From Mya arenaria (Eukaryota > Mollusca > Bivalvia > Myida > Myidae): a DNA stretch of 64,000 nucleotides. Below the pieces are notes generated by a model. That model saw only the letters and a list, made by a program, of their open reading frames with translations. It did no database searches and was not told the DNA's origin. Made by a program: the position numbers and the translations under genes. Below, piece by piece: positions 1,131-34,100 of the stretch (position 1 is its first letter; the number at the start of each line of letters is the position of its first letter). The stretch lies in NCBI RefSeq assembly GCF_026914265.1, contig NC_069124.1, forward strand, positions 32,573,383-32,637,382, given 5' to 3'.

Positions 1131-1211
1131 TCAAAATCGAAAGCAGTGGAAATTGATCAAGCTCTAGTTGTGTTCATGTTTGGCTGAATATGAGTTCTAA
1201 TTAGATATGGA
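1131..1211 (+). promoter_or_regulatory. H1 5' UTR and 5-nt coding exon
   Basis: The stretch from about 1131 to the ATGGA|GTAAGT donor aligns with the same region before H2 (24020-24108) and H3 (31080-31189). The shared features are a TCAAAATCGAAAG-like block, a TGTTCATGTTTG-like block and the terminal ATG. Conservation in a non-repeat context marks it as the transcribed leader. Confidence 0.6.
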
Positions 1212-4200
1212 GTAAGTTCAAGTTTTCATATCTACTGTTTGGTTTAACTTGACTGGAGTGTGTGTGTATATATATATATATCAAATCTAGATATTATCTA
1301 GAGCAAAACACGTTTCCAATTTGTTTACTATACAGTATATTTTCTTTTTCTTGCACCATTATTTTGATACTTTCTCAAAACAACTCATCTGAACTGGATC
1401 GTGATCCGTAGTAGAAACACCTTGATCTAATATCTGGCTTCTGTATCTCTAAATATCCCTTGGAACGATTTTGAACATCTGAAAATCGACATTTAATAAT
1501 TTGACCTGGATTGCGAGACGTGTTTGGTTAGTATTATTTTAGACACAACCAGGGGTTGAACTGGAGTAATGACTACGGGCATGAAATATTAGCTGCTGAA
1601 ATTCTTATAAATGGTTACCATCAAAGCAGGTATATAAATCAGGCATTCGCAAAACATACTGAAGCAACTTTCTGTACGAGTGTCCGACTATGCTGTCCGT
1701 ATGAAAATATAACATAAACTGACTCGTTGGAGTTAGAACTAGCATGGACTCCTATTAGACTTAAACAGTTAATATTCAAATTTTGATGAACTCTTAATCG
1801 CGAATGGCCTATTTTTACTGCGTTTTATTAGTCAGGGGTGCTCATCCAGTCGATATGCACTCGGTGATCCCTCTATATATTCTATATAAAACCGCCATCT
1901 TGAATGGCGTTGAAAATGAGTCGCAGAAAACTCGAGCGTGACTTTATCGGAGAGTTTACATATGTAGCAGACCACGCGCATGATATTAAACCCTAGGACC
2001 TTCGTGTTTATATAAGTCAAAACAAGTACAAACTTGTTTATGTCTGCACATCGCGAAGACATACATGTATTTATGAATTAATCATTTAATCGTATAGACG
2101 GTGGCGAAGAGACACCCTTCACTAAATCACTTTTTGTGTGTTTTAGATGAAACATGTTCTTTGGGTTTAGCGCAATTTTCCAACATTATTTCAGCTATAT
2201 ATGACGACCGGTTCAACTAACCAGTTTCCTGGACTGTATTCTAACCAGTACTAACTTGCCCTTCCTCAAGAAGCCGGCAACTTTTCCACATGTGGAGGAA
2301 AATCGACTTCTTTGTCAAATTTTCATGAAACGGTATGACCAGCCACGACCGGGGATCGAACCCGTATCGCCCGGTTACAAAACGAAAGCACTAATCACTT
2401 TGCCACGTCCGTGGCTTACTTCACTTATCACTAGTTATTCAAGAGGACGACCTCTTTACAACATTCCCTTTTCAGTGTCAATGCTTAATTTAATCGTGTA
2501 CACTCGGTTATCAAGTATAAACAGAATATCCAATGGTTTTTTTTAATAATATTTGCCACGATACCACGACTATTTCAGTAATCTATATCGTTAATCTTTC
2601 TTTTAAACGACTTATCTTCACCATTGATCTCACCATAACCCATCTAAATGAAGCCACACATTCTTTTTTTTACTTTGTTTATACACCAATTATCATAAGA
2701 AAAACTTTAAACCGTCAATCACTCCATCACATCATATGTACATAAAATATTTAGTTCAAACTTAGCAAGATGGTTTACTCCGCAGCTATCGCGATTTAAA
2801 CTTGACTATTTAAAACTACTATGAAAATATACTACAGAAATGATTGGCGCGAAATGGTTTAAGCGATATTAGTGGCACGCGCCAGAGTGTATTTTATGTG
2901 ATCATCAAAGCAAGTAGAGACATGTTTTACAACTCATCCAATCAAATTGCCTGACTTAACATCTTATCGATAAACAACCTGAAACATTTATCATTTTAAC
3001 GCAGTCCGCTGACAAGTACACTACGTTAAATCGCACTTTTTAAAGAAGACATCAAGCGGAAAAAGAAAGGTGTCAAATCAGGTAAGGGTCCTATATTTTT
3101 ATTTAAGCAGACGGCAGTTTTAATATAAGGTCTATGGTTAAGTTACTGATATTATCGCCGTACTATATAGTATTTTGACCGCTCTGCATTATCAATGAGC
3201 GTTAAGTTTGATAAATGTCTGGTTTTATCATTTTTACCACAGTGACGCACGTCTGTGTATAATTTAGGGTATAGAGATATTTGTAAAAAAACACAGAATA
3301 GCCATTTTTTATATAATTTATTTACATATATACATTAGTTATATACAGAAGAAACAATTTAAATATTATAGGTTCATTTACTCAAAGTCACTAGCTTTGA
3401 TCCAACTATTGAATTTCTTCGGATAATATTTCCATTTCACAAAATACTGTTTATATTTTCCTATTCCTTTTGTCTTTTCGATTTTATCAATTTTAAAAGT
3501 CTGATCTGGATCAAACGTTATTTATGCAGTTCAGATTAATAAATTGTTCCTTTAATTTCCTCATCTTGTAAGTCACGTAGTCTGTAGATAGGTAAAGTTC
3601 CTCTATGATATCTTTTGTGAATCTGGAAGATCTCGCCCGTGTAAGTCTCATCAGAAGCTGGTGTAAAGACATTTCTCAGATGACTGATTCTCACGTAATT
3701 CCCGACTTTGAATTTGAAAGGCTTAAGTTTTGTGTCTGGTTTCGCATACTTTCGATTTTGGGTAAAGTAGGTAGCTAGTCGCACTTCCTCCTGGTTACTG
3801 TCTATGACTTTGGAGGGTGGCATTCCAATAATTCTGTGATACGTATGATTGTAGCTGTATGCTATGTCTTGTAAGACAGGCAGATAGGAGTAACTGTCGT
3901 TGTGGGTGAAATATCGGTACAATCTACGCTTGATGGGATGGTTAGAATGACTCTCTCCCGAGTTGAGGCTTTTGTTTCGTTTTGGGTCGGAAAATATCTG
4001 ACATCATATTCACGCATCAGCGTCTGGACTTTGTAGCTCGAAACTCCTGACCTGTAATTGAAAATTATTTTCAATTTAGAATGGCAGGTGAATTCAAAGT
4101 TGAATTCCCTTTACAATACTTTCTAATTGACATACTATAAGTAATGGTATATTGTTTATAAGTAATGTGTTACAAATAATTCGTGATAAATTAGCGCAAA

Positions 4201-7200
4201 CGGAAATTGATACACATTTTGTAAAATTAACAATGTTTATGAAACATACCTTTGTCAGTTATAAGCTTTGCAGGAGATCTTTTGGATGACGTGAAGATGT
4301 CTTTGAAAGCTTTGGTCACCTCCTCTCCCGTTTTTGCTTTTAAGGGTCGTAACTATACGTACTTGGAAACGTGTCTATGACTAACAATATATACTTGTAG
4401 CCCTGGTTCAAGTCCACAAATTTAACCATATCAATTAGATCTCCCATCCACAAATCATCTTTTCCTGCACTGGTTTGTGTAGACTGTAGGATTCGTGATT
4501 ATGCAAGAACTTTCGTATTCTGTGCATTCCTATATTATATTTTCCTTCTTCTCTTACTACTTTATACAGTTTCTGTGGCCAAGCAAAACTACCGGGATGC
4601 TTAGGATCGTCATAAATTGTTTTTAGATAATCCTCCCACGGAGCCATGTCTTCTCAGTTCCGTGTTCAACCAACAAATGAATGAAGAACTCAGTTTGAGC
4701 GTTTTTATTCTACGTCCTGACTATCCATGTATTCTTCTTCGTTTTCATCTTCTTCGCTTTCTTCACTATCCTCCAAGTCAAATAAGTCTTCAAAGGCAAT
4801 CTTCTTTTTCTTCAATACGCGTTTTACTGCGGATGTCAAACTGATTCCTTTACTGCGGAACTCGTTAACTTGTTGGACAATCTCACGAAGGGTAGAATTT
4901 GTCATCAGTGGAAACCAGTACGTTTCCAACAACGTTGGGTATCTATCGAAGAAGTTTTTTTTCTTTATGTGGTTGCATATGTTTTCCTGCCATATCCGTT
5001 GCATAATATTCGTTTTCTCCATCGTCAATAAATTTGTCGTACAGCTTGTTGAACTTGTTTTGGCTACAACTTTGAGCAAGGTCTCATATATGTCTATATC
5101 TCTTATTATCTTCTACATCATTATCCCTTTCATTTTCATCTTCTTCCGTTCTTGCCCTTTTAGCAGGAGGTTCCCTATTTTCTGAACACCAACCACTTTT
5201 CACGTGCCTCTGGACGTCGTGCTCTGAATCAAACAAGAGTCCACAATCATCACAAGCATGTGCTTTATTTGCCATGACATTTTCCTTTTCTTCGTCGATG
5301 TGAACATCTTGAAATCCAACCGATGAATGATAAAGTTATGGTACACTCATCTCTTTTATAGTTTCGCACTGACCTGCGTGAATATGATTGGTTATGCCAA
5401 GTCGGTTTTGGCGTTATGGCATCTGATTGATCAGCCTTGTCTGGTTCCCTGTTTGAGTGTCTATCCATGTCAAATCGTATATTAATCTATCATTTTCTGA
5501 CGTAAAGGGTTTCAAGTCTACGAACAAATACATGTTAGGATTCTTAATGGCTCTTGCGAAGGCTTTTTGGAATTTTTCGGTGTTACCGGGGTACATCTGT
5601 CGAGCTAGTGTCATGATTGTTTGTCGATCTTCTGGGTTGTTAAACAGCACTAGGTAATGACAATTCCTCATTTGAGTCGCGTCCTTGTTGCCAAATAAAT
5701 TTTGGTTGATGGAAATCACAGATAAAGACCTATGATGTGATCCCTCGGTAAATTAATCAGTTATCCATTTATCCTTGCCCGATTCCTGTACAATTCGTCC
5801 AATATCAGTAAATTGTTGATTCTGGGATCAAAGAAATCATCGTTCTCTATATTCGTTGGAATGCCTTGAACAAATTTCACTCTTGGAAATACTGTACTCT
5901 GACCTAACGTGTGTGGTTGCCATCTTTTGTAAAGCCACACTATTCTCTGTATGTTTGGCTGGATTCTAGTGGTATTGTGCAGCATCATGTCCTTAACAAA
6001 TGTTGTCTTTCCACAAGCTGAAATATATCAATTAAGAATGCGATTTAACATGTGATAAGGTAGCTACCGATATTACAAAATTCAAAAACATTGTGATTAC
6101 TCGATTTTTACAAAAATCTTTGGAAGATAACTACCTGTGGGTCCCGATATCATCATGGTAAACGGATGTAGAAATACCATGCTTCTGCTCATAACTGTCC
6201 TCTCTTGGTGGTGGTGATGGTGGCGCTCCCTGTGGTGGTAGTGGCGCTCCCGGTGGTGGCGGTCCCAGATGTGGTGGTGGTGGTGGTGGTGGCGCTCCCT
6301 TTGGTGGTGGTGGTGGTGGTGGTTGTGGTAGTAGCGCTCCCAGATGTGGTGGTGGTGGTGGTGGTGGTGGTGCTCCCTGTGTTGGTGGTGGTGGTGGTGA
6401 TGGAGGAGAAGACACACTATGTTTCTGTTTGAAGTGTTTCAACATCGTATCCTTTCTACTATAATCCTGATTACATTCCGGGCACTTGTTCATGATTTCT
6501 CTCTGGCGGTCAGCTACCAACTGATACTTTATTAGTGATTTCCTAAATATTATATCATAATGAAAATATAAGACGTATCTATGTCGATTTTAACCAATCA
6601 AATGCTTTTGTCAAATCATCTCTACGCGTGCGCAACAATATGATTACTAAAGAGAATGCAGTCATTTTAAATTTCATTTTTAGATCAAGAGCTATCGTGA
6701 TCGGATGTAAAATCGTATACGGAAACACAGCAAACAAATTAAGATAAGGTAATTATTTAGCACTTCTTTAGTCTCGCCTGGCTCTATCTTAGTCTCGCCT
6801 GGCTTTTTTTTCGGGCGTAATTTTTGACTAGTTCTTGTTAGATCTACTATTTATTATACAATATATATGTTTTATTATGTTGAAAGTTAGATGTTTCAAC
6901 ATAAATATTTATAGCATTTAAAAAGAGACTAATGAATGTCATTCTAATTACAGAACTCATCATGGTTTACCAATGTGAACAATGTGGTAGTAACTTCCAA
7001 AAGCTTAGTCAACTGTTGCAGCATAGGCGCACCACGAATCACTGGAAACATATGTGTGATTCCTGCAAGAAGTCATTTTCCAGATAGCAGAATTTCGATA
7101 GACATTTGCGAAAGCACAATGATGAAAACAGCCATCACTGTCCTAAGTGCCTAAGAGCGCTTACAAGGGATGACGCATTAGACGAACTCTTGCATCATGA

Positions 7201-10200
7201 ACATAGTTGGTCAAAGACTAAACGTTCTTCGGATAGTCAAGAGGGTGGTGGAGCTGCGAAAAGGCAGAAACTAGAAGACAGCACAGCAAGTTTCTATGAC
7301 ATTGAGAAAGTTGGTGTAAATAAGATAGAACAGTTTAGAACTACGGCCATTTATTACAAAGTGAATGTCAAAAACCTGGAAATACAAGAATTACCATCTA
7401 TATTGAAAACACTGAAAACGATTTTCCAGTCTATCCTTGAACACATCACAGAGATGATAATGGATACTGATTTGGTACGGATTTCCATTGACAATCCTGA
7501 GTTAGACTTTCCAATCACACTGGAATTCATGCCACGCCGGGAACTGACTGTTGAGGAAATACTATCGGAAATCGAAGATGTTCTTCAATCGTACCAACAA
7601 TTCGTCCTGGACGAAACCTTTCGCATCGATATTGTTCATGTTAAGGCGCCCTATGGGAAGGGGCATTAACAGAAAGCATTCGTAGATATAGTAAGGCTAC
7701 TACAAAGTAAAGGAAGTGGCATCCAGATTAGAAATAACGATGAACTTTGCTGTGCTCGTGCCATAGTGACAGCGATAGCCAGGGTAGAAGAACATCCTCA
7801 GTGGGATAGTATACGTAGAGGATATGGTCTTCAAAACGTAATGGCAGTAGACTTACACAGGAAGGCTTAAGTATCACTGAGACAATGTGGAATTGAAGAA
7901 GTGAAAAGGTTTCAAGCTGTACTCCCAAACTATCAGATACATGTCGTGTCAAGAACGTTTCAATGGTATTATCTACGAGGGCCCAGAAGGAGGCGTTCCT
8001 ATCTACCTTTACTACCACGACGAACATTTTGACGTCATCACCAAGATGACTGGCTTTCTAAACAGAAGTTACTACTGTGAAACTTGTAAAAAAAATGTTA
8101 TTCTAACAAAGAGCGACGTGTTTGTAATAACCCCTGTGTGTACTGCCATCAACTGCATACAGATGAAACAGAATATTGGCGGTTCTGTGACAAATGCAAC
8201 AGATACTTTAAGAATGGCATCTGCTTTCAAATGCATCTGAAGAAGAGTAGCGAGGATGTTAAAAACACATGTGAAATATATTTTAAATGCAAGGATTGTG
8301 ACCAGACTATTAATTTGAAGAGACACAAAAAGGCTCACGTCTGCCATGAAGTGTGTTGTAAGACATGCAGAGATTTTTTCTCAGAAGACCACCAATGTTA
8401 CATGCAGCCAGTTGAGAGAGAAGAGAAAACTAACAAAACAACCAGCAAGAATGAACGTACTTCATACATATTTTCTTTGATTTTAAATCGACACAGGATG
8501 ATCGTTTGGAGTGTGATCAAGGCTTTGTTGAGGGAAAAACCAATAAATGCAACAACTGTAGAAAATCGTGGTGTGGATCCAATGAGAACAGGCCTAATCT
8601 GTGTGTAGCACACAGAGTTTGTGACGTGTGTCTTCACAGCCCTGTTACATCAGAATCATCGTGTAAAACATGCGGTAAAAACGAAAGAATATTTCAAGGA
8701 CTTGAGACGACAGAAGGCTTTTGCAAATGGTTGTTCTCTGAAGAAAACGTTGGAGCTACAGTGATCTGTCACATTTTCAAAGGGTATGACAGCTACCCGA
8801 TCCTCCAGTATCTACATAACAACTCTATCCTTCCAGACGTGATCACAACGGGATCTAAATACATGTCTGTTAAGGTATCCCTGTGCAACATTCGAATGAT
8901 AGACTCACTAAACTGTATTCCCATGCCCTTGGCGGATATGCCGGTTTTTTTGGCGATACTGAGTAAGCAAAAGGTTACTTTCCTCATTTGTTCAATCGTA
9001 AGGAAAACCAAAGCGCAATTTTACCACACCTTCCTGATCTACAGTTTTACGCACCAGACAGCATGAAACCAGAGGCCAGACGAACGTTTTTACAGTGGCA
9101 CGAGATAAACAAGACTAAACCATTCGACCTCCAGAAATAATTATTACGTTACTGCCAGTCAGATGTGGATATTCTTAGAAAATGCTGTTTGAAATTTCGA
9201 GAGTTGTTCATGGATTTAACAGACCCGTTCGAGAATGTATCACTATTGCGTCCGCATGTCATCTTGTATACAGAACAAATTTTCTAGAGCACGAGAGCAT
9301 TGCCGTGATACCACCGCATGGCTACCGGCCAGAAGAAAAACAGTCCACCATGGCTTACCAATGGATGTCGTATCTAGCACACACAAAGCAGATTAACATC
9401 CAACACGGGAGAAACATGGGAGAAAGGCACATTGGTCCTTTCAAAGTGGACGGTTACTACGAAACAGATTCTGGTAAAAAGGTGGTAATGGAGTTCCACG
9501 GTTGTTTCTGGCACGGGTGTTCAAAGTGTTTTTTCTAAGACAACAGTCAATCCGGTGACTAATATGAACATGGGAGATTTGCATGATAGGACCAAAGAGA
9601 AACAACAATTCTTAGCAGAAAATGGCTATACGTACATCTCTATATGGGAGTGCGATTTCATGCAAGATATAGCGACGAATGCCGACTTGAAACAGTATAT
9701 ACAAAACCTTGAGTTGGTAAGTCCACTAGAACCTAGAGATGCTTTCTTTGGGGGTCGCACAGAAGCCTTTAAACTGTATGAATAAACATCAGCGACAAAC
9801 CAAATCATATATTATGACGTGACCTCTCTTTGTCCGTTCGTCAACAAGACAGGAAAAATACCTGTTGGGCACCCACATATAATTTCAGGGAATTTCCAAG
9901 ACATCAGCCACTATGAAGGTTTGATTAAATGCAAAGTGCTACCACCTAGGGGATTACATGTCCCAGTGTTATCTATGAAATGGAATGGAAAACTTTTGTT
10001 AAGTTTATGTCGCGTATGCAGTGAAAACTTTCAACAGAGCCCGTGTGAGCATACCGATGGTGAGAGAGCATTTGTTGGTACTTGGGTCACTGATGAGCTG
10101 AAAGAGGCATTGACACAAGGTTATATCCTTCAAACCATCTATGAAGTCAGGCATTTTGAGTAAGTGTCCCAGTATGATCAAGAGTTGCAATCTGGTGGAC

Positions 10201-13200
10201 TGTTTACCGAGTATGTTAACACCTTTTTGAAAGTAAAACAACATGCGAGTTGCTAGCTAGATTGGTGTATCGATAAAAATACCAAACTAAAGTACATTCA
10301 ACAATATCACGAGGAGGAGGGCATTCTGCTAGACTACAACAAGATTGAGAGAAATCCTGGATTGAGATCACTGACCAAACTTATGCTGAACTCCTTCTGG
10401 GGTAAATTTGGTCAACGAACAAATTTGACCCAAACCTCATTCATAACAGACCCTGCATAATTCTTCGAAATGATGACTTCTGACCAGCAGAGAGTGAAAA
10501 ATGTACGCTTCCTGAAAGACGAGTCTGTGAAGTAAGAATGGGTGTACAACGATGACTTCATTGAGGCTTCTGCTAGAACCAATGACATTATCGCAGCCTA
10601 TACTACAGCACACGCACGCCTCAAGCTCTACGGCTACTTGAAACAGCTTGATAGGCGGGTATTCTATTGTGACACTGACTCTATCGTATTCAAGACAGCC
10701 CCGGGACAGTGGGAGCCACCACTCGGGGACTACCTAGGAGACCTCACTGACGAGGTTCCTAATAACAAGATCACAGCATTTGTTACTGGTGGTCCTAAGA
10801 ATTATGCCTTCAAACTCTCCTGTCCAAACAAAAAAGGGCAAAAGTCGATTTGCAAAGTGCGCGGTATTACTCTGAATTTCAAAACCTCTATTGATATCAA
10901 CAACCAAACAGTTAAAGACATGGTAACTGGACATAGTAATGTGGATCATACATCTGTCATTGATGAAAACAGGATTGTTAGAAACCCTTCCACAGGACAT
11001 GTGCTTACAAAACGAGAAATTAAAGATTATATTGTGTTTGACAAGCGCGTGATTAAATATGACTATCAAACTGTTCCCTACGGAATATAATTACGAACTA
11101 TTACTTATGAACCTTATAACAATTGCATATATGTTATGTACGTTTGTCATTGAACCTGTATGTTGTATTCTTAGTTTGTTGTGTTGGTACTGTATGCTTG
11201 TGTTGTATATCATACATTAATAAATAAATACTTATATACTACAACTGGCTCTCGTTATTTTGTAAAATATAAAAAAAAAACGCTAATAAAACAATGCCAT
11301 CTTTAAGCATATTTGACTGCTATATAAATATGTGTTGTTATAAAGCGATGTACATAGCGCTGATATTATTTACACTCCTACGCGACAGTCCATATAGAGA
11401 AGTATACATGCTGACCTCCACTGACCTGACGCTCTAATAGTGAGATATTGAAAAGGTCGTCTGCTCAATGAATTGATTATATTTAAATATGGCGGCTTAT
11501 ATCGTCTGCTCTATTTAACCGCCCACGACCTGTTCGACCCAGAAAAGGTCACGGGCGAGCAGGTCCAAAAAGCGACTCATTTTCTACGCCATCCAAGATG
11601 GCGGTTTTATGTAGAATATATAGAGAGGTCACCGAGTGCATATCGACTGGATGAGCACCCCTGACTACTTATACTCTTATATAGACATGAGGTTATCAGT
11701 TTATTGAGTTGGTAGTTATATTAAAACATTTGTTGTAAGTAGATGTGATGAATTAGGTATGATTGTTCTTTCATTTTTTTAGTATGTTTAAATAAGAATA
11801 TTGTTTTAGTTTATTGTATCGAAAATGACCATAAACCAATCAGTCGTTCGTTATCATTTTCCACTTTATTGAAATAAGTATAGATTTTTACTTTTTACAA
11901 ATTTATACAAAACTAAAAAACGACATCTTCCGATGAGCTATAAATCTGGTTCATTTCTAGGCATTCCAGTTCAAGAAATGGTTCCACAGACAACTTTGAG
12001 GTAACTTGGCAGGACAAGCTCATTGTGGCAGCAATAGACTTTGGGACAACATTCAGTGGTTTCGTTGTGTCATTTCTCGATGAGTATCAGCAAGATAAAA
12101 CTGGTCGCTTTATCTCACACGATTGGTCTAGTGGAGAGGGAGTTAGGTAGAGTGTTATTTCAACATTATCAAGGTCTGAATAGCAAGGACTTAAATTACT
12201 ATCCAAGCAACGGAAACACGCTTCCCTATAATTCGTTATAGTACTTTTTTTGTTTTGTCTAAAACTGATATATTCTTATATCATTTAACACTGCGGTATA
12301 TTATGCTGGTAACCATAGCATAGCATGTTCACAATTAACTTGTCACATCAAAATCTCACAGTCGTGTTTAGAAATGAGACGAAATTAATAAAAAAAATGT
12401 CCATTCATACGCAATTTATATAAACCATATTTAGAACAACCAAGACGCCGACTGCTGTCTTGCTTAGACCTGATACAACGTTGGATTCTTTTGGTTATGA
12501 AGCAGAGGATCGGTTTCTTGCTGAAAACATTGAAGACGATGAAAATAATGAAAAAAGTGTTGATCGAGAGACCTGGTACTTCTTCCGACACTTCAAAATG
12601 AAACTGTATGGTGACAAAGTACGTAAGGTCATTCATCTGTTTCTGGCGTCTGCTCTGAAACTTATTAATTAATATTAATTTTGATATTATAGTATAACGT
12701 TATTGAGCGTCTGTTCGTAAATGTATTTAAACTTTATACAATATAACTACATAGGTGTTGATATATTACAGCGTCTCAAACCAATCACTTTGGACAGTAA
12801 AATACCGGACGAGAGAGGACGGGAGCTCCCTGCAATCTTAGTTTTCTCGAGAGCAATCGCCTACATGAAGACCAAGATATTCGAAGTCGTATCGGATAAG
12901 TTTCCAAACGTTAGAGAAGATGACATTTACTACGTTCTGACATGTCCTGCCATTTGGTCAGACACTTCCAAGCAATTTATGTCTAATGCTGCTGAAAAGG
13001 TACAACTGTTTTTTTTTTCGTTTTAGAATGTGCTGCATTTTATGTACTTTCGTGAACATAAGTAGAAACACGTAGTTTATCGAAGTTTGTTTCTGCTTTA
13101 GGCTGGAATTCCGTACGACCACCTGCGTATTGCTCTTGAGCCAGAGTGCGCCGCTGTGTATTTGCTGACAAAAGAAGTGCCGTCTGTTAGTTCCTCATTT

Positions 13201-14628
13201 CGAGAGCGTTTCCCAAGGAACGAAGGAGATTGCTACATAGTTGCTGATCTTGGAGGTAATGACTGATATACATATGTAATTTACTATATATCAGAAATTT
13301 AATTTTCGATAACAAGTGTTTTAAATTGAAGTTTGATCTTTTGTCTATAAAGTTTTTTAAAGGAAATTATTTTACGAAAAATGGCCATTTAAAAAAAGAT
13401 TGTCCCTAACATATAAAAATATGAGAAATGTAAGCCATGTTGTCAATTTAAGTATGCGCACCTGTTATTTTGTATTTAAAAAGCCGATTTGAATACCACA
13501 GTAATTCTTATCCAAATAAGGTGTGTTGTTCAAGTTGCTTTTGCTCCAGGTGGTACTTTGGACATAGCAGCACACAGAATCAACAAGAACCACAAATACG
13601 ATGAAATAATGATTCCAGATGGGGGACCTAGCGGGGGCAACAACATCAACTTTAAGTTTGAGCAATTACTGGTGTCCGTTTCAGGTGCCCAGGCATTTTT
13701 ATTATTTAAAGATAAAAACTCGCAGGATTACCTCTATTTTATGAGGACTTTTGAACACAAGAAGTGTGGGTTTCCAGGTGATGCAGGCAAAAAAAGTGTT
13801 ACCATGCTAATGCCATTAACATTCGCCGAACGTCATATAGAAGAAAATCACGAGACATTAAAGGATTCTGTTCGCCAGACCTCGTTTTCACAGTCTGTTG
13901 TCTTGATCCCCGGTAAGATTACAGTGAAGAACTCCCTTTTTGAGAGTTTCTTTGAAGAAACTTTGGTGCAGATTGAAGATAAGCTGGTTGAGGTCATGGA
14001 AAGGCTTTCGAAACGATACAATATCAAAGCCATATTTTGTGTTGGAGGTTTTTCCGATTGTAAACTCGTTAAAGAGAGAATTAAAGCCAGATTTTCCGAA
14101 AAGCACCTCGTGGTTATCCCCGCCGAGGCAAACGTTGCCATCATGAAGGGAGCAATAATCTACGGAAGGGATGAAAGGTTAATAGAAACGCGCATCAGCA
14201 AGTACACTTTTGGTTTGGATTGGAATGAAGATTTCGATCCTAAAGTCCACCCTGTAAGCAAGCAGGAAAACACGGATGACGGATACATGTGCAAAGATAT
14301 TTTTAAGGTGATCGCTAAAGTAAATGAACCAATACCAACTAACAGACCTACTCAAACGTTCGATTCTTATGTAAAGACAGCTTCCCAGACAGCTATGGAG
14401 TTTCCGTTCTATAGAACTCTTACTGATCCCCCGCCAAGGTTCATTGATGAGCCAAACTGTTATTTTATGGGCTCAATGAAGGTATCTTTGGAAGACACTG
14501 CAGGAGGAACAGATCGGTTTGTGACGTTAAAGATATACCTAGGAGCGACGACGCTTCGAGCTGAAGCCATTGACAACAAGGGCAGGACCCATAGGGTTAC
14601 ATTTTTGCTTGGACAAACACAGGTTTAA
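1207..14628 (+). CDS. H1: HSPA12-like HSP70-family ATPase, six coding exons
   Basis: Predicted exons are 1207-1211, 11961-12146, 12435-12618, 12772-12999, 13102-13255 and 13550-14628, giving 611 aa with every junction in phase and GT-AG introns. Exon 1 codes only ATG plus GA, and the donor reads ATGGA|GTAAGT. What is seen: phosphate-1 motif AAIDFGTTFSG (about residues 20-30), an acidic loop in exon 3, phosphate-2 motif VADLGGGTLDI (Asp about 250) split by the last intron, and adenosine motif IFCVGGFSDCKL (about 413-424). The family is the atypical HSP70 branch HSPA12A/B: cytosolic nucleotide-binding proteins without the classical substrate-binding domain, often expanded in bivalves and linked to stress and immunity. 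The length fits (600-675 aa). Intron 1 is 10.7 kb because a Polinton lies in it. A candidate AATAAA is at 14934. Exon 1 rests on alignment with H2 and H3, so the start is less certain than the rest. Confidence 0.85.
1213..1829 (+). other. H1 intron 1, left part
   Basis: This is intronic DNA homologous, with gaps, to the intron 1 sequence of H2 (for example 1550-1829 against about 24710-24990). It carries a short TA run near 1265. No gene is seen. Confidence 0.55.
1830..1924 (+). repeat. Polinton left terminal inverted repeat
   Basis: It begins AGTCAGGGGTGCTCATCCAG and ends GAAAATGAGTCGC. It matches the reverse complement of 11572-11666 with about five mismatches and no gaps. Confidence 0.9.
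2145..2415 (-). mobile_element. tRNA-derived SINE, molluscan type, inside the Polinton
   Basis: Read on the - strand, it starts with a tRNA-like head containing the perfect B box GGTTCGATCCC and a looser A box around TGGCAAAGTGATTAGTGC. The body follows, with CAGTCCAGGAAACTGGTTAG, and the tail contains GTTGGAAAATTGCGCTAAAC. This 3' domain resembles the conserved end of widespread molluscan tRNA-SINEs (the MetaSINE group), which is recall and not a search result. It lies in the non-coding left arm of the Polinton, so it inserted later. Confidence 0.7.
2420..3535. other. Polinton left arm, non-coding
   Basis: AT-rich sequence between the SINE and the integrase gene. The open frames are short and no product was recognised. 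Confidence 0.5.
3536..4650 (-). pseudogene. Polinton integrase (rve type), fossil
   Basis: Protein fragments in order on the - strand match the integrases of Polinton-like elements. The N-terminal part contains FAWPQKLYKVVREEGKYNIG and IRKFLHNHESYSL. The C-terminal part contains YSYNHTYHRIIGMPPSKV and a chromo/SH3-like tail with FKVGNYVRISH. The role would have been strand transfer of the element into chromosomal DNA. It is broken, with several breaks. Confidence 0.8.
4705..5275 (-). pseudogene. Polinton zinc-finger accessory protein, fossil
   Basis: The N-terminus has a C2H2 finger (CDDCGLLFDSEHDVQRHVKSG) and a basic KRAR patch. The middle has FFDRYPTLLETYWFPLM. The C-terminus is an acidic Glu/Asp-rich tail. 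The same arrangement sits between integrase and ATPase in related invertebrate elements, but its function is unknown to me. It is broken. Confidence 0.55.
5414..6520 (-). pseudogene. Polinton packaging-type ATPase with zinc-finger and polyproline N-terminus, fossil
   Basis: The N-terminus has a C2H2 finger (CPECNQDYSRKDTMLKHFKQKH). A long polyproline tract follows, coded by a GGT/CCA-rich simple repeat at about 6205-6410. Next comes a P-loop region (HPFTMMISGPTG), a Walker-B-like strand (NNLLILDELYRN) and a C-terminal half with RNCHYLVLFNNPEDRQTIMT. This matches the A32/FtsK-HerA-like ATPases of Polinton-type elements. It is broken, with a few breaks. Confidence 0.7.
6521..6962. other. Polinton divergent promoter region
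   Basis: AT-rich spacer between the divergently transcribed ATPase (- strand) and polymerase (+ strand) genes. The phrase TAGTCTCGCCTGGCT is repeated in tandem at about 6769 and 6791. No coding sequence was seen. Confidence 0.4.
6963..11090 (+). pseudogene. Polinton family B DNA polymerase, fossil
   Basis: The N-terminus carries C2H2 fingers (YQCEQCGSNFQKLSQ and onward) and a conserved leader with FPITLEFMPRRELTVEEIL. Cysteine-rich zinc knuckles lie in the middle. The exonuclease region has the DSYPILQYL block. The palm has LMLNSFWGKFGQRTN and the catalytic block YCDTDSIVF. A leader with fingers fused to a protein-primed PolB is typical of these elements. It is broken, with roughly ten breaks, and covers most of the usual length. 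Confidence 0.85.
11091..11571. other. Polinton right arm, non-coding
   Basis: AT-rich sequence after the polymerase gene and before the right terminal repeat. AATAAATAAATA near 11220 could have served as a polyadenylation signal. Confidence 0.45.
11572..11666 (-). repeat. Polinton right terminal inverted repeat
   Basis: It ends CTGGATGAGCACCCCTGACT and is the reverse complement of 1830-1924 at about 95 percent identity by eye. H1 intron sequence resumes at once after it and aligns to H2 intron 1 (TATCAGTTTATTGAG, near 25000). Confidence 0.9.
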
Positions 14629-15329: not shown

Positions 15330-15812
15330 TCTTTAAAAAATCGGCGATTCTGTTTGACGACGTTTGTGCGACGTCACCTGAAAATATGACGTCAATCGGC
15401 CGTTGCATTTTGAAATAAACAACGTTTGCTCTATAACAGTCAAGCATGCTATGAATGTCGATATGTCGTCACAAGAAAGTTTGGAAATTCGCGCAAACAT
15501 TAAGTTTTGCAAAGAAATAGGGAAAACACCATCCGAAACGTATAAGCTACTAATGCTGACACGGGGAGACAGCTGCGTTTGCCGTGCACTGGTTTTCAAG
15601 TGGCATCGACGCTATTCTGATGGCCGACAGTCCCTTGAAGATGATGCAGGTCGTGGACGGAAGTCAACAATCGGACCGTCAGCTGTGACGTCAATTGATG
15701 AGAAACTGGAAGCGGATTGCAGAATGACTGTACGGGAGCTGTCAGAGGCTGCCACTGTCAGCTATGGAACCGCACACAGCATTCTGACCACCGAATTAAA
15801 CATGCGGAAGGT
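15330..15812 (+). mobile_element. mariner transposon, 5' part (helix-turn-helix half of transposase)
   Basis: The transposase frame opens near 15451. It reads SSQESLEIRANIKFCKEIGK, then VFKWHRRYSDGRQSLEDD and GRGRKSTI, the N-terminal DNA-binding half of a mariner transposase. It runs to LNMRKV at about 15812, where homology stops at the DIRS-type insertion. The other half resumes at about 20388. Terminal inverted repeats could not be fixed with confidence. Confidence 0.8.
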
Positions 15813-15988
15813 ATTTAGCAGTATTCACTTCTCTTGTATAATGATATTTATTTGTATGATTAAGCTAGACTTACCTTCGGAGAAGGTAAGGCGAAGGTTG
15901 ATCTTAATTTCATCCGACACAAAACTCCGTCAGGGCTCACACAGATTCCGGACGCAGTATTCAGCGAATCAAATACATTCATATTTTA

Positions 15989-16324
15989 CATTCGGAACTC
16001 CTCGGCCATTTTTTCCAAAAACAACCTCGGATGTATGCAGGTACATCAGTTGAAGTAGTTCGTAAAATTTTGAATTATATCATTAATTAAATGTAATGTT
16101 TTAGAGTTGTATTTATTGATCTAAGTTTAAATTGATTGCCAATGAATTGTATTATTGCAAACATAATTAAGAATCCCAAGAGTTAAGTCACAAAGTTTAA
16201 CTGCTAAATAAAATTACTACGCGATCTACTTGCAGCGGACTTAAACGTACCACTTTTTGAGTATGTAAACCGTCCAAATACATCCGAGGTTGTTTTCGAT
16301 AAAATGGCCGAGGAGCTCCGAATG
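15989..16324 (+). mobile_element. Mutator-like MITE, copy 2, with 10-bp target duplication
   Basis: This 336-bp element has long imperfect terminal inverted repeats, beginning CATTCGGAACTCCTCGGCC and ending GGCCGAGGAGCTCCGAATG. Identical TCATATTTTA lies on both sides (15979-15988 and 16325-16334). A 9-11 bp duplication with long terminal repeats fits the Mutator-like superfamily. It is non-coding and lies inside the DIRS-type element, so it is the youngest of three nested layers. Confidence 0.85.
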
Positions 16325-16559: not shown

Positions 16560-18480
16560 GAGTTTTAACACGCCTCTGGTAGGAGCTTATATCAATCCCG
16601 GTCCTTTGATCAGCTTTAACAACATTGGCCACCACACCTGAATCGGCCAAATTGGAACTATTATTATCGCTTCTGTGCGGTCCCTTTCGATTTTTTGCAG
16701 GATACGAGTCAGTAAATTGAAAGGAGCAAATATGTAATATAGTTGCCCTGTCTATCGCAATGAATTGCGTCTTAGCCTATGCAATCTGTATCAGGAAAGC
16801 GACTGACAAGTTGTTTCAGTTTTGCATTTAATTTTGATGCAAATAAATCTATAGATATGTTCGGATATATGTTCATTAAAGTTTTGAAAATGGATGACTC
16901 AAGCGACCATTCCGTGTCATCGTTTTGTGATCTACTCAGTTTATCTGCTTTCTTATTGTCTACCCCTGCAATGTGGGAAGTCGACACTTGAATACTTCTA
17001 GTAATGCACCAAAACCAAAACCGTCGCGCAATTTCATCTTATGAGGTTATCTTTCCCCCATATCTGTTTAGATATGAGCAACATGTGATATTGTCCGTAT
17101 ATATTCTAACATGTACATGGCTCGTATTTTTACAAAACGTACGTATTGCAATGTCACACGCCTTCAATTTTAAAACGTTTATATGCAACTCTTTTTCTTG
17201 TGGTGACCAATAACCATTTGTTCGCGAGTTATTTGTTTGGTCATATGCTCCATACACGTCTTGAGAAGCATCAGAAAAAATAACAATGTCAGTGTCAAGT
17301 GATCGTGGTACGTTCATAAAACCGTCAAAATTTCCACGGTTAATACGTAATTGTTTTTCTTTTACCTTTTCCATGGGTCTTATGTGTAAAGGTGCATGCG
17401 TCACCCCTGGCTCTGCGGCGATTAATTTCCCTATCATTTTTGCAAAATCACGAATACTTGTTCGTTTTTTCTGAATCATTTCTTTACATAATTGCAAAAT
17501 GTCCTGGCATTTTTCATGTGTCAACCGAATAGTCATCGAAGTTGAACACAAAATGAAACCTAGAAAAGTTATTTTTTGGCACGGGACTAAAACTGATTTT
17601 CCTACATTTACCGTAAGTCCCAGTTGATCCAGAAGGTGAATCGTATCTCTAACATTGTTTAAATATGAATTGAATGTATCACCTAATAAACACGAATCGT
17701 CAATGAAGTATACGCTAATATGTCCTAATGACCGTAAGTATGCGAACACCGGTTTCATGCACTTTGTCCAAATTTTTGAGCTGCAACTGTAACCCATGAC
17801 TTAAGCGTAAATTTGATATTTCACACCATCGAACATAAATCTAAAATAACGACGATCCTGTTCTCTTTTCATAATCGAGTTATAAGCGTCTGATATATCA
17901 GATGATGCAAGATAACAGTCTTTCCTCATTGCATTGATAGCTTGGCGAAGAGATTCCATTTTAAAATGTGTTTTCTCCACATATGTTTCATTAAACGATT
18001 TTAAATTTAGAATAATTCTTACACGACCGTCTTTTTTATGTCGAATAAATATATTTGAGATAAATTCGTTAACTGAATCGTCTGGAGCCCATTATATTAT
18101 ACCACTTTGTAAAAAAAAACGTTCAAGTTTTGCCTCAATTTTTTGAGAATCCTCAACATCAAAATTAAAAGGTTTTGGTACAAAAATTTGTTAAGGGGTT
18201 TCCGTAAGTTCGACACTACATCCACGTATTGTGTTTAATACCCATGTATCACTTGTGATGGATTCCCACAATGCAATTCTTTGAGCTGTCTTTCCTGCCG
18301 AAAAATTGCCTGGAGTATTGTAAAGGCGTATTTGAATTTCATTACTTACATTTAAGATTTTTTCACCGATTTCCCCCTTTTTAAAAAAAAAACTGGTTTC
18401 GATGGAAAGAGCGGCTGTTTCTCGGGATGTTCGTCGAATTTGTCTTGAAGTTGGAGTTGTTGTAGCTCGCGCTGTTGACG
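16560..18480 (-). pseudogene. DIRS reverse transcriptase/RNase H, fossil
   Basis: The RT palm is marked by ISVYFIDDSCLLG and the downstream block KITFLGFILCSTSMTIRLT. RNase H follows, with DIVIFSDASQDVYGAY and HINVLKLKACDIAIRTF, and ends in AGVDNKKADKLSR. A short conserved tail with SIDLFASKLNAKLKQLVSRF comes last. This set is diagnostic of DIRS/Pao-side YR retroelements. It is broken. Confidence 0.8.
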
Positions 18481-24019: not shown

Positions 24020-24108
24020 AAAACGCAGTGGATATCATACTGATTAAATTACTCTAGTTGTTTTCATGTTTGGGTGAATATTAAACAATATCTAAATGGA
24101 AATATGAA

Positions 24109-25260
24109 GTAAGAACCAGTTTTCTTCTTTCCTGTATGTTTTAAAAAACCCAAAAAACTTTACTTAAACCGCTTTATTAATTCTTCTCAGTCAAACTTCA
24201 ACGTTAACTAAAACGGATCGTATCTAAAAAGGCGTGATACCACAGTTGTTTTACTATGTTTCATATGGACACTATCTTGGCTATTAACTTTAAAACAGTC
24301 CGATTAAAAACAAGCAACTGGCTGCTGTAGAACAATCCAAGACACAAACATTATTCACACATGAAAAAATAGCGTTGACCAATTCGGCGTCTCATAAAAT
24401 TGAGTAGAAATACATGACTCTGAGGTCAAAACGGAATAAGGCAACACACAATAAATTTTACAGAGTTTTTCGGCCATGATTTTTTTTCCCAATATTGACA
24501 CTGGAAACTATCATTTGTTGCAATACATTGTCAAATTATGTTAAGCTCTATACAAAAAGAGCACCCATTGCCATTTAGATTTAATGAAATAGTGTTACTT
24601 GAGCACTCCTTTTTGTATTAACACCCGGGTCCTAGTCAAATATCCTATCGACGTTCAATTATTCGGACTAGATCATATGCGAGACATGATGTTTTGTTAA
24701 TGTCATTTGAAACACAGCCCAAGGTTGAGTACTGACTGCTGAAATTGTTTAAAATGATTATCATATCAGATATTAAACGTGCATCCGAAAACCATATCAC
24801 ATGGTATGGACCGAGCCAACAATATCTGTCTGATTATGCTGTTTGTACGGTTTGTACGAAATATACCATAAAAAATGACTTTTTCGAGTTAGAAACAACA
24901 TCTGAAAACAGTTAAATTCAAATTGTGTTTAAATTTTGATCTGTCAGTGCGTTACTGTGACTACATACTACTATTTGATTTATACTGTTTATATCAGTTT
25001 ATTGAGAAGGCAGTAACATTCATATCTTTGTTTAAGTAAGCGTGATAAATTAATCATAACTGCACTTTGATATGAATTACCGCTAAATCGGGACATATTT
25101 GAGTGTTATTGTAACTAAAATGACTTTAAACAAATCGGTTGTTCGATACTGTTTGCCACACATTTAAAATGAGTGTCAAACAATAACATTTCACAAGTTA
25201 ATAAAAAATATTCCAGAAGAGTAAAATCGATCGACGACCTATACATATTTATTTTTTTAG
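24109..25260 (+). other. H2 intron 1
   Basis: This is the paralogous counterpart of H1 intron 1 without the Polinton. Matching blocks flank the insertion point near 24970-25010 (TTATATCAGTTTATTGAG). Confidence 0.6.
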
Positions 25261-25773
25261 CGTTCTAGTTCAAGAGAGGATCCTACCGTATCCATGGGGA
25301 CAACTTGGCAAGACAAGCGCATTGTTGCTGCAATAGAATATGGGACAACCTTTAGTGGTTTCGTTCTGTCAGTTAACGAAGATAATGGTCATGATAAAAC
25401 TAATCGAATACTTTCACATGAATGGTCAAGCGGAGAGGGGAGTCGGTATGGCGTTTGACCCTGTAACATTAAATTGCCCATTACATTTTAGTTTAGATAC
25501 ACGTTTTTGTATTACACTGATTTTTTTTACATTCGACATATAAAAGTATCACGGTAGTAAATCATTAAATGAAACATAACACAGCTAGTCTGAAAAAATA
25601 AATAAAAACATATTAGGATGCAATAGCTGTATGTCTCATGCAACCTTAGCCTGTGGCAAACTATGCATCCATTTTAGAACTGCAAAGACTCCGACTTCTG
25701 TCTTATTGAAGCCTGATACATCATTGGACTCATTTGGCTATGAAGCAGAAAATCGGTATCTTTCTGTATATAT

Positions 25774-25786
25774 TGAAGACGACGAC

Positions 25787-25878
<92 letters not shown>
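25774..25878. repeat. (GAT)n trinucleotide expansion in H2 exon 3
   Basis: About 34 GAT units with one interrupting T at 25841. It lies where H1 and H3 code an acidic Asp/Glu loop (ENVDDDEDDEQSD in H3), so the microsatellite grew from codons for that loop. Confidence 0.95.
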
Positions 25879-25879
<1 letters not shown>

Positions 25880-27928
25880 GCAATCTCACCACAGTGACAA
25901 TGTTGATCCTGAAACCTGGTACTTCTTCCAGAACTTCAAAATGAAACTGTATGCAGACAAAGTACGTGCAATGTTTATTTTTTATGTTAAGAGTTTCCGT
26001 TACGGAACTTAATATTCATCGTTTGTCCGGATTTGATAAAAATTTGTACAGTAACATAACAATCTTGTAACCAAATTGCACAATGCCATCAATCCTGACT
26101 GAGGAGATTTAATTTTGAAAATTTAAATATGTAATAACGTTTGTGTTTATTTTATCCAGCTTCGCAAATCACTTACGACAGTAAAATACCGGACGAGAGA
26201 GGACGGGAGCTTCCTGCTATTTTAGTCTTCTCAAGAGCAATTGGCTACATGAAGTTTAAGATATTCGAAATCGTATCGGAGATTTTTTCAAATGTTAGAG
26301 AGGATGACATTTACTACGTTCTGACATGTCCTGCTATTTGGTCAGAAACATCCAAGCAATTTATGTCTGAAGCTGCTGAAACGGTATTTTTCTGAGTATT
26401 TTGTTTTAAAATATACTTTACCATGTTCTTTCGTATGAATGCATTTCAATTTTGCTTTAAAAGATAAGATTGTTATCGAAATTTTGTTGTTGTTTTAGGC
26501 TGGGATTCCTTACAACCATCTACGTATCGCTCTTGAACCAGAGTGCGCCGCTATTTATATGTTGAAAACGGAAATACCGTCTTTAAATTGCTTACTACGA
26601 GAGCGTTTCCCAATGAACGAAGGCGATTGCTACGTTGTGGCTGATCTTGGAGGTAAAGACCAGTTTCATTAATGTGCAATTTATGATGTGTCAGAAAAAT
26701 ATCTTTCGGAAATACATATTTAAAATATGCGACACATTGTCATACTTAGTATGTTCCCTGCAATAAATATATATATTTAAAAGTCAAATTACTTATCATA
26801 GTAATTCTAAATCCAAATAGGGTGAAAATGCCAGCTGTTCTGTTTTAGGTGGTACTTTAGACATAGCAGCGTATAGAATCAACAAGAACCGAAAATACGA
26901 CGAAATAATGACTCCCGATGGAGGATCTTGTGGGGGCAACAACATCAACCATAAGTTTGAACAATTTCTGATATCCGTTTCAGGTGTCGAGGCATATGCA
27001 AATTTTAAGGAAAAATACTCACAGGATTACCTCTCTCTTATGAGGAAATTTGAACACAAAAAGTATGGCTTTCTAGGTGACAAGGGTCAAGCAGTTGTTG
27101 CCATTCAAGTCCCGTTAGCAATAATTGAATGTCATAGCCAAGCAAATCACGAGTCATTTCAGGAATCTATTCGCCAAACTTCATTTTCAAAATCTGTTAT
27201 TCTGAAAGGAGATTCTATAAAAGGAGAGATCACTGTTTGAGAATTTCTTTAAAGAAACTTTGGTGCAGATTGAAGATAAGCTTGCTGAAGTTATAAAAAA
27301 GCTGTCGGAATGATACACTATTAAAGCCATATTTTGCGTTGGGGTTTTTTCTGATTGTAAACTCGTTAAAGAAAGAATAAACGCAAGATTTTCCGACAAA
27401 CACCTTGTGATTATCCCTGCAAAGGCAAACGTTGCCATAATGAAGGGAGCAGTTATCTACGGAAGAGAAGAGAATTTAATAGAAACACGCATCTGCAAGA
27501 ACACGTTTGGTTTGGATTGGAATGAAGACTTTGATCCTAGAATCCACCCTGTGAGTAAGCGAGAATGCACGGATGACGGATACATGTGCAAAGATATTTT
27601 CAAGGTGATCGCAAAAGTAGGTGACGCAATTGCTTCCAACACACCTACACAAATTATAAAATCCTATGTGAAGACAGCTTCACAAACAGTGATGGAGTTT
27701 CCGTTTTACAGAACTCTTACTGATCCCCCACCTATGTTCATAGACGATGAAAGCTGTACTTTTATGGGCTCCATGAAAATATCTTTAGAAGACACTACAG
27801 GAGGAATAGATCGGTTTGTGACGTTGAAGATATTCATAGGAGCAACAACGCTTAATGCCCAAGCCATTGACAACAAGGGCAGGACCCATAGAGCTACCCT
27901 TTTGCTCGAAAAAAAACAACAGGTTTAA

Positions 27929-31184: not shown

Positions 31185-34100
31185 ATGGAGTAAGTGAAAA
31201 ATTATGTTTGTCCTTTTAGGTGTTAATGTAAACAACACATTTCACAAGAATAGATCAAAACAAAACAGTTAAATTGTAAGACATAGGTTATAGAAACAAA
31301 TGCTCAAACATCAAACATGGCAGCTTTCTTTGGTCGATGTCTGAATTTAAGATATTAAGCCATGCTTTTACGTCTTCTGAATTTTGCCGTATCCAAGACA
31401 TGATTTATTCACCAACAAAGTTAAAACACAAGCCTAATTAGGCCTGCTCCGAAATTGATGTTTTTCCAATCAATGTTTTGAGACAAAACCTGGGGATGAG
31501 CAAAAACATCGTATTGTACATGGGAAACCAGCTTGCTAAAAAGTAATATTAGTTATACATAAAAGAATATTTGTACTCGGACAACAACTCGTCAAGAGTA
31601 TGCTGTTTCGTTTTAAGATATAACATAACATTGGCTTTTTTGTAAGAACCAGCCTTGTCTCCTAGAACATTCAATAGTTACATGTACATTTTAACATTTT
31701 AATTACTCGGGGCGTTATTGTTATCGCGTAGTATGATTTTATTTATACGTGTGGGTTATCTTAAGCATGATTACTGATATCAATTAAGAATAATACTTTA
31801 GTTTTATTGTGCTAAAATTATTTTATTTTTCCTATCAGTCGTTCACCACTTGTTTGAATCATTTTTAATTAAATATGATATATTTTACTTATACGAATGA
31901 ATCAATCGATCGACTCCCTATATACATGTATATATTTATTTAATATTTTGTAGACGTTCTAGTTCAAGAGAAGGTTCGACAGTCTCAACGGAGACAACTT
32001 GGCAAGACAAGCTCATTGTTGCAGCAATTGACTTTGGGACAACATTTAGTGGTTTCGTTCTGTCCTTTCTCGATGATTATCGGCAAGATAAAACTAGTCA
32101 TATTCTTTCACACGAATGGTCTAGTGGAGAGGGTAGTCGGTATGGTCATTGACTTGTAGTTATAAAATGCCCCATTATGTTTTTATTCTAATGCATGGTT
32201 GTGTATTGCACTTAATTTTATTTTCTATCAGATGTTTCTACAACATTCGACATTCGACTAATAAAAGTATTACGGTAGTCATTAATTAATATCATTTGAT
32301 GAAAGATAACACACCTGGTCTGATAAAACACACGCCGACCCTTAGGATGCAATTGTTGCAATCTCTGCCATCAGAAAAAAAAAAACAAATCCATTTTAGA
32401 ACTGCAAAGACTCCGACTGCTGTCTTGCTGAAGCCCGATACGTCGTTGGACTCCTTTGGATATGAAGCGGAAAATCGGTTTCTTTCTGAAAACGTTGATG
32501 ACGATGAGGATGATGAGCAATCTGACCGTAGTGATATTGTTGATCCTGAAACCTGGTACTTCTTCCGAAACTTCAAAATGAAATTGTATGGTGACAAGGT
32601 ACGTTAGGTTCATCTTCTGTTTTACGTTCCTGTTTTTAAAGCTATATATTTATCGTTTATATGACTATGTTATAAGCTTTAGGTTTTGTTTGTGAAGTAC
32701 CATTAGTGTGATTCTTGTGTTCAGGTTCATTGACTCTTGACTGAGGCGATGGTTAGCGATAGCTATTCTCAAATCGTTCTATTTAATCTGAAAACTTAAG
32801 TAGATATAAAATTGTGCATGCTTATATTTGTCCAGCTTCGCAATCCTATCACTTTCGACAGTAAAATACCGGACGAGAGAGGACGGGAGCTTTCTGCAAT
32901 TTTGGTGTTCTCAAGAGCAATTGCCTATATGAAGATGAAGATATTCGAAGTCGTATCAGAGAGGTTTCCAAAACTTAGAGAGGATGACATTTATTACGTT
33001 ATGACATGTCCCGCCATTTGGTCAGAAACTTCGAAGCAATTTATGTCTGATGCAGCTGAAAAGGTATGATTATGTTTAATTAAATTTTACAATGCGCCTT
33101 ATTTAATGTCTTTTCTTGAAAAAATAATTTTTATTTTGCTTGAACAAATAAGTTGATTTATAGAAGGTTTTTGTTGCTTTAGGCCGGAATTCCATACAAC
33201 CACATACGCATCGCTCTAGAGCCAGAGTGCGCAGCTGTTTATATGTTGACAAAGGAAGTACCGTCTCTAAGTTCCTCATTACGAGAGCGTTTTCCAATGA
33301 ATGAAGGAGATTGCTACATAGTGGCTGATTTGGGAGGTATAATTTATTAAATGTCACAAAAATCATTTAGATATTATTCAGTTATTGAAATTATGTAAGA
33401 CATGTCATCATACTAAGTTTATGTCCCTGTAATGTTTCTTTAAAAAGCCTAATTGAATTCCACAGTAATTCTTAGCCCAAATAAGGTAAAAAGTGCAAGT
33501 TGACTTGTTACAGGTGGAACTTTAGACATAGCAGCACATAGAATCAACGAGAACCGAAAATACGACGAAATAATGACTCCCGATGGAGGACCTTACGGGG
33601 GCAACAACATCAACCATAAGTTTGAGCAGTTCCTGATATCCATTTCAGGCGCCCCGGCATATGTAAATTTTACGGAAAAACACTCACAGGATTACCTCTA
33701 TCTAATGAGGAGTTTTGAACACAAGAAGTATGGGTTTCCAGGTGATGCAAGTAAAGCAAGCGTGACCATGAGAATGCCGTTTTCATTCGTCGAATGTCAT
33801 AGGGAAGAAAACCACGAATCATTTCAGGAATCTGTACGTCAAACTTCGTTTTCAAAATCTGTTATCCTGAAAAGAGATACCATAACAGTTAAGAAACCAC
33901 AGTTTGAGAGTCTCTTTGAAGAAACGTTGGTGCAGATTGAAGATAAGCTTGCTAGGGTGATGGAAAAGCTTTCAAAACGATACAATATCAAAGCAATATT
34001 TTGTGTTGGAGGCTTTTCCGACTGTAAACTCGTTAAAGAGAAAATTAAAGTGAAATTTTCCAACAGACACCTTGTGATTATCCCTGCCGAGGCAAACGTT

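What the first reader, a model, noticed from the sequence alone, without database searches (positions are those of the whole stretch)
1207..11960. A fossil Polinton makes up most of intron 1 of an otherwise intact HSPA12-like gene
Seen: H1 exon 1 (ATGGA|GTAAGT) at 1207 and exon 2 at 11961 enclose a 9.8-kb element with 95-bp inverted ends. H2 and H3 have the same splice pair with introns of 1.15 and 0.76 kb, and H2 intron 1 aligns on both sides of the insertion, acting as an empty site. H1 stays open across 611 aa, so the gene seems to tolerate a 10-kb intron load.
Basis: partly seen in the sequence, partly recalled or inferred. Interest (0 to 1): 0.7.

Follow-up and report, generated by a model that had tools for sequence, protein, structure and literature searches.

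The report
Decayed Polinton-like element in chaperone intron
A dead virus-like jumping element of about 10 kb sits in the first intron of a heat-shock-protein-like animal gene whose coding sequence still looks intact, which is a clear but fairly ordinary case of a gene living with a large mobile-DNA insertion.

Summary
The anatomy holds up. H1 has six exons (1207-1211, 11961-12146, 12435-12618, 12772-12999, 13102-13255, 13550-14628), five GT-AG introns and 611 aa without a stop. A 9,837-bp element (1830-11666) with 95-bp inverted ends (90/95 identical) fills most of the 10,749-bp intron 1. H2 intron 1 aligns to both flanks, so an insertion is well supported. Corrections: H2 is itself broken and its exon 1/2 pair differs (ATGAA|GTAAGA, one base missing at exon 2, out of frame); H3 does share ATGGA|GTAAGT and is open. 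No clean 6-bp target duplication. The element holds a broken family-B polymerase (Pfam, PHROGs), a chromodomain beside an integrase-like region, and an ATPase-like region with Walker motifs. No capsid or protease gene was found in the part searched, and 9.8 kb is short for a Polinton. It is decayed: five in-frame stops in 1.6 kb of polymerase. One apparent break, in the ATPase P-loop, looks instead like a 117-nt GT-AG intron. Transcription from exon 1 across the element is inferred, not shown. Ordinary overall; the seemingly capsid-less, intron-bearing element is the more interesting lead.

The parts
1207..1211 (+). H1 exon 1, five coding bases (ATGGA) followed by GTAAGT
   Evidence: same motif at H3 31185; ATGGAGTAAG occurs only at these two places on the + strand and nowhere on the - strand of the window
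1212..11960 (+). H1 intron 1, 10,749 bp
1830..11666 (.). inserted Polinton-like element, 9,837 bp
   Evidence: inverted ends, H2 paralogue without it
1830..1924 (+). left terminal inverted repeat, 95 bp
11572..11666 (-). right terminal inverted repeat, 95 bp, 90/95 identical
3378..3500 (-). chromodomain, taken as C-terminus of the integrase
   Evidence: Pfam Chromo PF00385, E 1.2e-6, 28.7 bits against cut-off 25.1
3536..4653 (-). integrase-like region in several frames, broken
   Evidence: six-frame reading and recalled resemblance; no Pfam match
4705..5112 (-). acidic ORF of unknown kind
   Evidence: Pfam only a DUF2605 match far below its cut-off
5414..6160 (-). ATPase-like region, frameshifted, with Walker A and Walker B motifs
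   Evidence: six-frame reading by eye; no Pfam or PHROGs match
6018..6134 (-). putative 117-nt GT-AG intron inside the Walker A motif of the ATPase-like region
   Evidence: sequence printed; boundaries read by eye from it
7088..11090 (+). family-B DNA polymerase, broken; C2H2-like finger matches below Pfam cut-off at and just before its N-terminal side (6905-7160)
   Evidence: Pfam DNA_pol_B_2 E 9.3e-8 and 3.7e-6; PHROGs DNA polymerase E 6.8e-14; five in-frame stops between 9489 and 11090; fingers
11961..12146 (+). H1 exon 2
12435..12618 (+). H1 exon 3
12772..12999 (+). H1 exon 4
13102..13255 (+). H1 exon 5
13550..14628 (+). H1 exon 6 and stop
   Evidence: HSP70 Pfam match of the whole protein E 1.5e-5
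24109..25260 (+). H2 intron 1, 1,152 bp, paralogous site without the element
   Evidence: first base corrected by one
31190..31953 (+). H3 intron 1, 764 bp, paralogous site without the element

Best explanation
A Polinton-related element (family-B polymerase plus chromodomain integrase) inserted into intron 1 of the HSP70/HSPA12-like gene H1 after H1 and H3 had separated, and is now decayed. H1 most likely still starts at its five-base coding exon 1 and splices the whole 10.7-kb intron out, so the insertion is a passive passenger under which the coding sequence stayed constrained. Shown: anatomy, inverted ends, absence at the paralogous sites, open reading frame, decay. Inferred: transcription from exon 1, splicing across the element, neutrality.
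For:: H1 gives 611 aa with GT-AG at all five introns. Exon 2 cannot start alone: reading upstream in its frame meets a stop at 11941 without an ATG, and in the first 125 residues the only methionine after residue 1 is residue 119, beyond the DFGTT loop. H3 shares the exon 1 motif; positions 1203-1217 match 13 of 15 against 100 of 190 around them for H3, and 12 of 15 against 115 of 190 for H2. H2 aligns on both sides. Terminal repeat divergence is 0.055 (0.018-0.129), below H1-H3 dS of 0.40 (NG86; 0.37 by YN00), so the insertion is younger than the split. H1-H3 dN/dS is about 0.25. H1-only and H3-only amino-acid changes in exon 6 are 10 and 12, counted only at gap-free columns where H4 and H5 agree, so H1 is not accelerated.
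Against: No transcript data. One alternative mini-exon (ATG 11687, GT at 11692) would also give the right phase between the element and exon 2, with a poor donor context; the inside of the element was not scanned for such exons. The open H1 frame is weak proof of post-insertion constraint: expected nonsense 2.2 at the point estimate, P(none) 0.11, range 0.49 to 0.005. No clean target duplication. H1 and H3 appear to have exchanged sequence at the 3' end of exon 6, which lowers their overall dS and could have kept or made H1 open.
Confidence: 0.8

Rival explanations
1. H1 now uses a new first exon or promoter inside or just downstream of the element, and exon 1 at 1207 is a relic.
For: The intron is 10.7 kb with the element and 0.9 kb without it. 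One in-phase ATG/GT candidate exists at 11687-11692. H4-H6 have an ATG in the exon that corresponds to exon 2, so starts have moved within this family.
Against: The exon 1 motif and donor are kept in H1 and H3. The candidate donor has a poor context.
Confidence: 0.12
2. H1 is a young pseudogene, silenced by the insertion but not yet broken.
For: P(no nonsense) under neutrality is 0.11 at the point estimate of insertion age and 0.49 at its lower bound. The neighbour H2 is broken.
Against: Five stops in 1.6 kb of the polymerase against none in 1.8 kb of H1, if the polymerase was intact at insertion. H1 exon 6 protein is no faster than H3.
Confidence: 0.12
3. The inverted ends and element are an assembly error or chimera joined into the intron.
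For: Single assembly, no reads; no clean target duplication.
Against: Both flanks align to H2 intron 1 right up to the element.
Confidence: 0.03

Closest known systems
Polintons/Mavericks (PMC4028283, abstract and Findings part 1 read; PMC8097293, passages)
   Same: Family-B polymerase, integrase-like gene with chromodomain, ATPase-like gene, terminal inverted repeats; most vertebrate copies are also decayed (96% of loci, PMC8097293).
   Different: 9.8 kb against the 15-20 kb stated in PMC4028283; no MCP, penton or protease found here; no clean 6-bp duplication; a putative spliceosomal intron, whereas intact vertebrate elements are reported intronless (PMC8097293).
Adintoviruses (PMC11071296, passages)
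   Same: That paper states an rve integrase with a C-terminal chromodomain and a PolB for them.
   Different: No hexon or penton gene found here.
Transposon fragments in long first introns of animal genes (PMC9783078, passages: TE fragments in cytochrome P450 introns of an aphid, including a 21-kb first intron)
   Same: Large transposon load in a first intron.
   Different: Here one element with both ends and an open host frame; there many fragments and a pseudogene.

Membership tests
Polinton/Maverick | protein-primed family-B DNA polymerase | tested here: met
   Pfam DNA_pol_B_2 above cut-off in two pieces; PHROGs DNA polymerase in 3 of 10 pieces at E below 0.01. Protein priming itself not testable.
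Polinton/Maverick | RVE-family integrase | tested here: inconclusive
   Chromodomain met; no rve match in any of the five distinct integrase pieces searched plus one overlapping piece; single-sequence fold of one piece uninformative, pLDDT 29.2.
Polinton/Maverick | FtsK-like packaging ATPase | tested here: inconclusive
   Walker A and B motifs by eye; no Pfam, PHROGs or meaningful PDB match.
Polinton/Maverick | major capsid, penton and protease genes (MCP intact or split in more than 80% of 72 elements, PMC4028283) | tested here: inconclusive
   None found, but only 18 of the 49 ORFs and 4 further fragments went to Pfam; remnants could be too decayed.
Polinton/Maverick | terminal inverted repeats | tested here: met
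   95 bp, 90/95; ends AGT...ACT.
Polinton/Maverick | 6-bp target site duplication | tested here: not met
   TTTATT / ACTTAT, not identical; decay could explain it, so I say Polinton-like rather than filing it as a proven member.
Polinton/Maverick | 15-20 kb length | tested here: not met
   9,837 bp; full-length or slightly truncated copies of 5-14.9 kb are reported in an aphid (PMC9783078, passages).
HSP70/HSPA12-like gene | HSP70 domain | tested here: met
   Pfam HSP70 E 1.5e-5, 23.9 bits against 20.6, over residues 179-264; NCBIfam HscA/DnaK models match down to E 1.3e-10 but far below their cut-offs. No PDB match at E 0.01. The HSPA12 subfamily name is recalled, not tested.

The most novel reading that the evidence does not exclude
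The element belongs to a compact, roughly 10-kb Polinton lineage that has lost its virion genes, keeps polymerase, chromodomain integrase and an ATPase, and has gained a spliceosomal intron in the ATPase P-loop. That would make it a virus-derived element fully adapted to a chromosomal life with nuclear expression. Of the 72 elements of PMC4028283, 13 had no MCP, and nine of those also lacked both protease and ATPase, so an MCP-less element that keeps the ATPase would belong to a small minority there.
Probability: 0.15. Interest if true: 0.5.

Novelty: new member of a known kind. Interest (0 to 1): 0.27.

Why it matters
It gives a datable insertion of a large virus-like element into an open animal gene with paralogous sites as controls. 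If the element family proves capsid-less and intron-bearing, it would bear on how virus-like Polintons turn into plain transposons.

Tried and rejected
Three scans of viral contigs with a polymerase, an ATPase-like and an integrase-like piece found 0 confirmed relatives (3, 1 and 6 pattern matches, none confirmed). PDB sequence searches gave nothing meaningful for the ATPase-like piece (best E 0.27), the integrase-like piece (none), an H1 ORF (best E 0.24, Hsp105) and whole H1 (none at 0.01). Rfam at gathering threshold and the tRNA scan were empty. The bacterial promoter scan does not apply to a eukaryote. AlphaFold of two single pieces gave mean pLDDT 42.7 and 29.2, too poor for a fold search, so none was run. 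No other element fragment was found in the window: 13 of 13 protein pieces matched only themselves, and the DNA pieces only themselves or the other inverted repeat. A first register for the inverted repeat was misplaced (67 mismatches); the alignment and BLAST in the same call, give the right one. H2 exon 1 was set one base too high (the ATGAA is 24104-24108); the joined length is the same, so the out-of-frame result stands. 'All breaks are decay' was rejected for the ATPase P-loop, where a GT-AG intron fits better (that script's own donor search missed, and the coordinates were read from the printed sequence). The organism was not identified; a mollusc is only a recalled guess.

Full report
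Gene. H1 reconstructs to six exons and 611 aa with GT-AG at each of five introns. The whole protein matches Pfam HSP70 (E 1.5e-5, 23.9 bits against 20.6). Exon 1 adds five coding bases. Without it exon 2 has no start: its frame closes upstream at 11941 without an ATG, and in the first 125 residues the only other methionine is residue 119. H3 shares exon 1 and the GTAAGT donor exactly and reads 616 aa. ATGGAGTAAG occurs in the window only at 1207 and 31185 on the + strand and not on the - strand. In alignments around exon 1, positions 1203-1217 match 13 of 15 (H3) and 12 of 15 (H2), against 100 of 190 and 115 of 190 around them.

Correction on H2. H2 has ATGAA|GTAAGA and lacks a base at the start of exon 2, so the pair does not splice in frame; exon 6 has a frameshift and a stop. 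It is a broken paralogue. Its intron is still informative: left flank 1263-1832 aligns with 24401-24998 (score 802; 200 shuffles, mean 514, maximum 568) and right flank 11667-11971 with 24963-25270 (no shuffle control on this side). The insertion point lies within about 24963-24998 of H2. No exact 6-bp duplication is seen.

Element. It spans 1830-11666, 9,837 bp, with 95-bp inverted ends differing at 5 sites. Twenty-two pieces of the element went to Pfam (10, 7, 2, 3; some overlap), and 18 of these are among the 49 ORFs listed. Three of 22 passed a curated cut-off: two polymerase pieces (DNA_pol_B_2) and the chromodomain. In PHROGs, 3 of 10 pieces matched DNA polymerase with E below 0.01, and one further piece a weak endonuclease (E 0.013). 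The integrase and ATPase labels rest on the neighbouring chromodomain, Walker motifs and recalled resemblance; neither reached a Pfam model. No capsid, penton or protease was found in what was searched, and the longest ORF wholly within the left 1.4 kb (1925-3377) is 113 aa.

Decay and a possible intron. The polymerase has five in-frame stops between 9489 and 11090 and frame changes further upstream. The ATPase-like region has a frameshift and a stop. Its P-loop is interrupted by 117 nt with CAG|GTAGTT at one end and TTTCAG|C at the other (6134-6018, - strand); excision would leave a G-x4-G-K-T motif. I read this as a spliceosomal intron rather than decay; no transcript or relative was available to test it. 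PMC8097293 (passages) reports no introns in intact vertebrate elements.

Age and constraint. Terminal repeat divergence is 0.055 (0.018-0.129), below H1-H3 dS of 0.40, so the insertion came after the H1/H3 split if rates are alike. The five polymerase stops fit the upper part of that range (expected 2.0 at the point estimate, P of five or more 0.05; 4.6 at the upper bound; an assumed nonsense fraction of 0.045), unless the element was already defective when it inserted. For H1 the expected nonsense changes are 2.2 at the point estimate, P(none) 0.11, range 0.49 to 0.005. So an open H1 favours constraint without proving it. H1 and H3 proteins evolve at similar rates in exon 6 (10 against 12 lineage-specific changes at columns where H4 and H5 agree). 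H1 and H3 share a 114-nt identical run near the end of exon 6 (0 of 5000 permutations reach it; for third positions alone 12 of 5000), with dS falling to 0.07 in codons 541-600, which suggests gene conversion.

Literature. PMC4028283 (abstract, and Findings part 1 of 2) gives the family features used above. PMC8097293, PMC10294476, PMC11071308, PMC3671162, PMC9783078 and PMC11071296 were seen as passages only. PMC10294476 reports Mavericks across all mollusc genomes it analysed. Searches with Polinton, intron and mollusc terms (15 of 15 papers listed), Polinton and oyster (12 of 16 listed), adintovirus, mollusc and integrase terms (10 of 348 listed), and Maverick, intron and bivalve terms (10 of 67 listed) showed no title or abstract start that describes this insertion; only open-licence PMC papers are held, so this is not proof of absence in print.

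Verdict. A sound observation with one wrong detail. The kind of event is ordinary; the element's gene content and possible intron are worth a family-level look.

Noticed in passing
834-1117 and 15989-16283: Inverted 85% repeat copies, one just upstream of H1 exon 1; probably a small transposon.
   Followed up: no
14386-14499 and 34350-34463: 114 identical bases in exon 6 of H1 and H3 where the exon differs at 139 of 1079 sites: a likely gene conversion tract.
   Followed up: partly
2230-2440, - strand: tRNA-like A box (2406) and, by eye, a near-consensus B box inside the left arm of the element (the strict B-box pattern did not match; ARAGORN found no tRNA): candidate nested SINE.
   Followed up: partly
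15403-16053 and 17039-17797: Mos1-like transposase helix-turn-helix matches, and a reverse transcriptase with Pao peptidase match, all below Pfam cut-offs.
   Followed up: no
about 25781-25880: GAT trinucleotide expansion in H2 exon 3; its effect on the frame was not tested.
   Followed up: no
36869, 45206, 51781: H4-H6 carry an ATG within the exon that matches H1 exon 2, so the five-base exon 1 may be peculiar to H1-H3; upstream exons of H4-H6 were not searched.
   Followed up: partly
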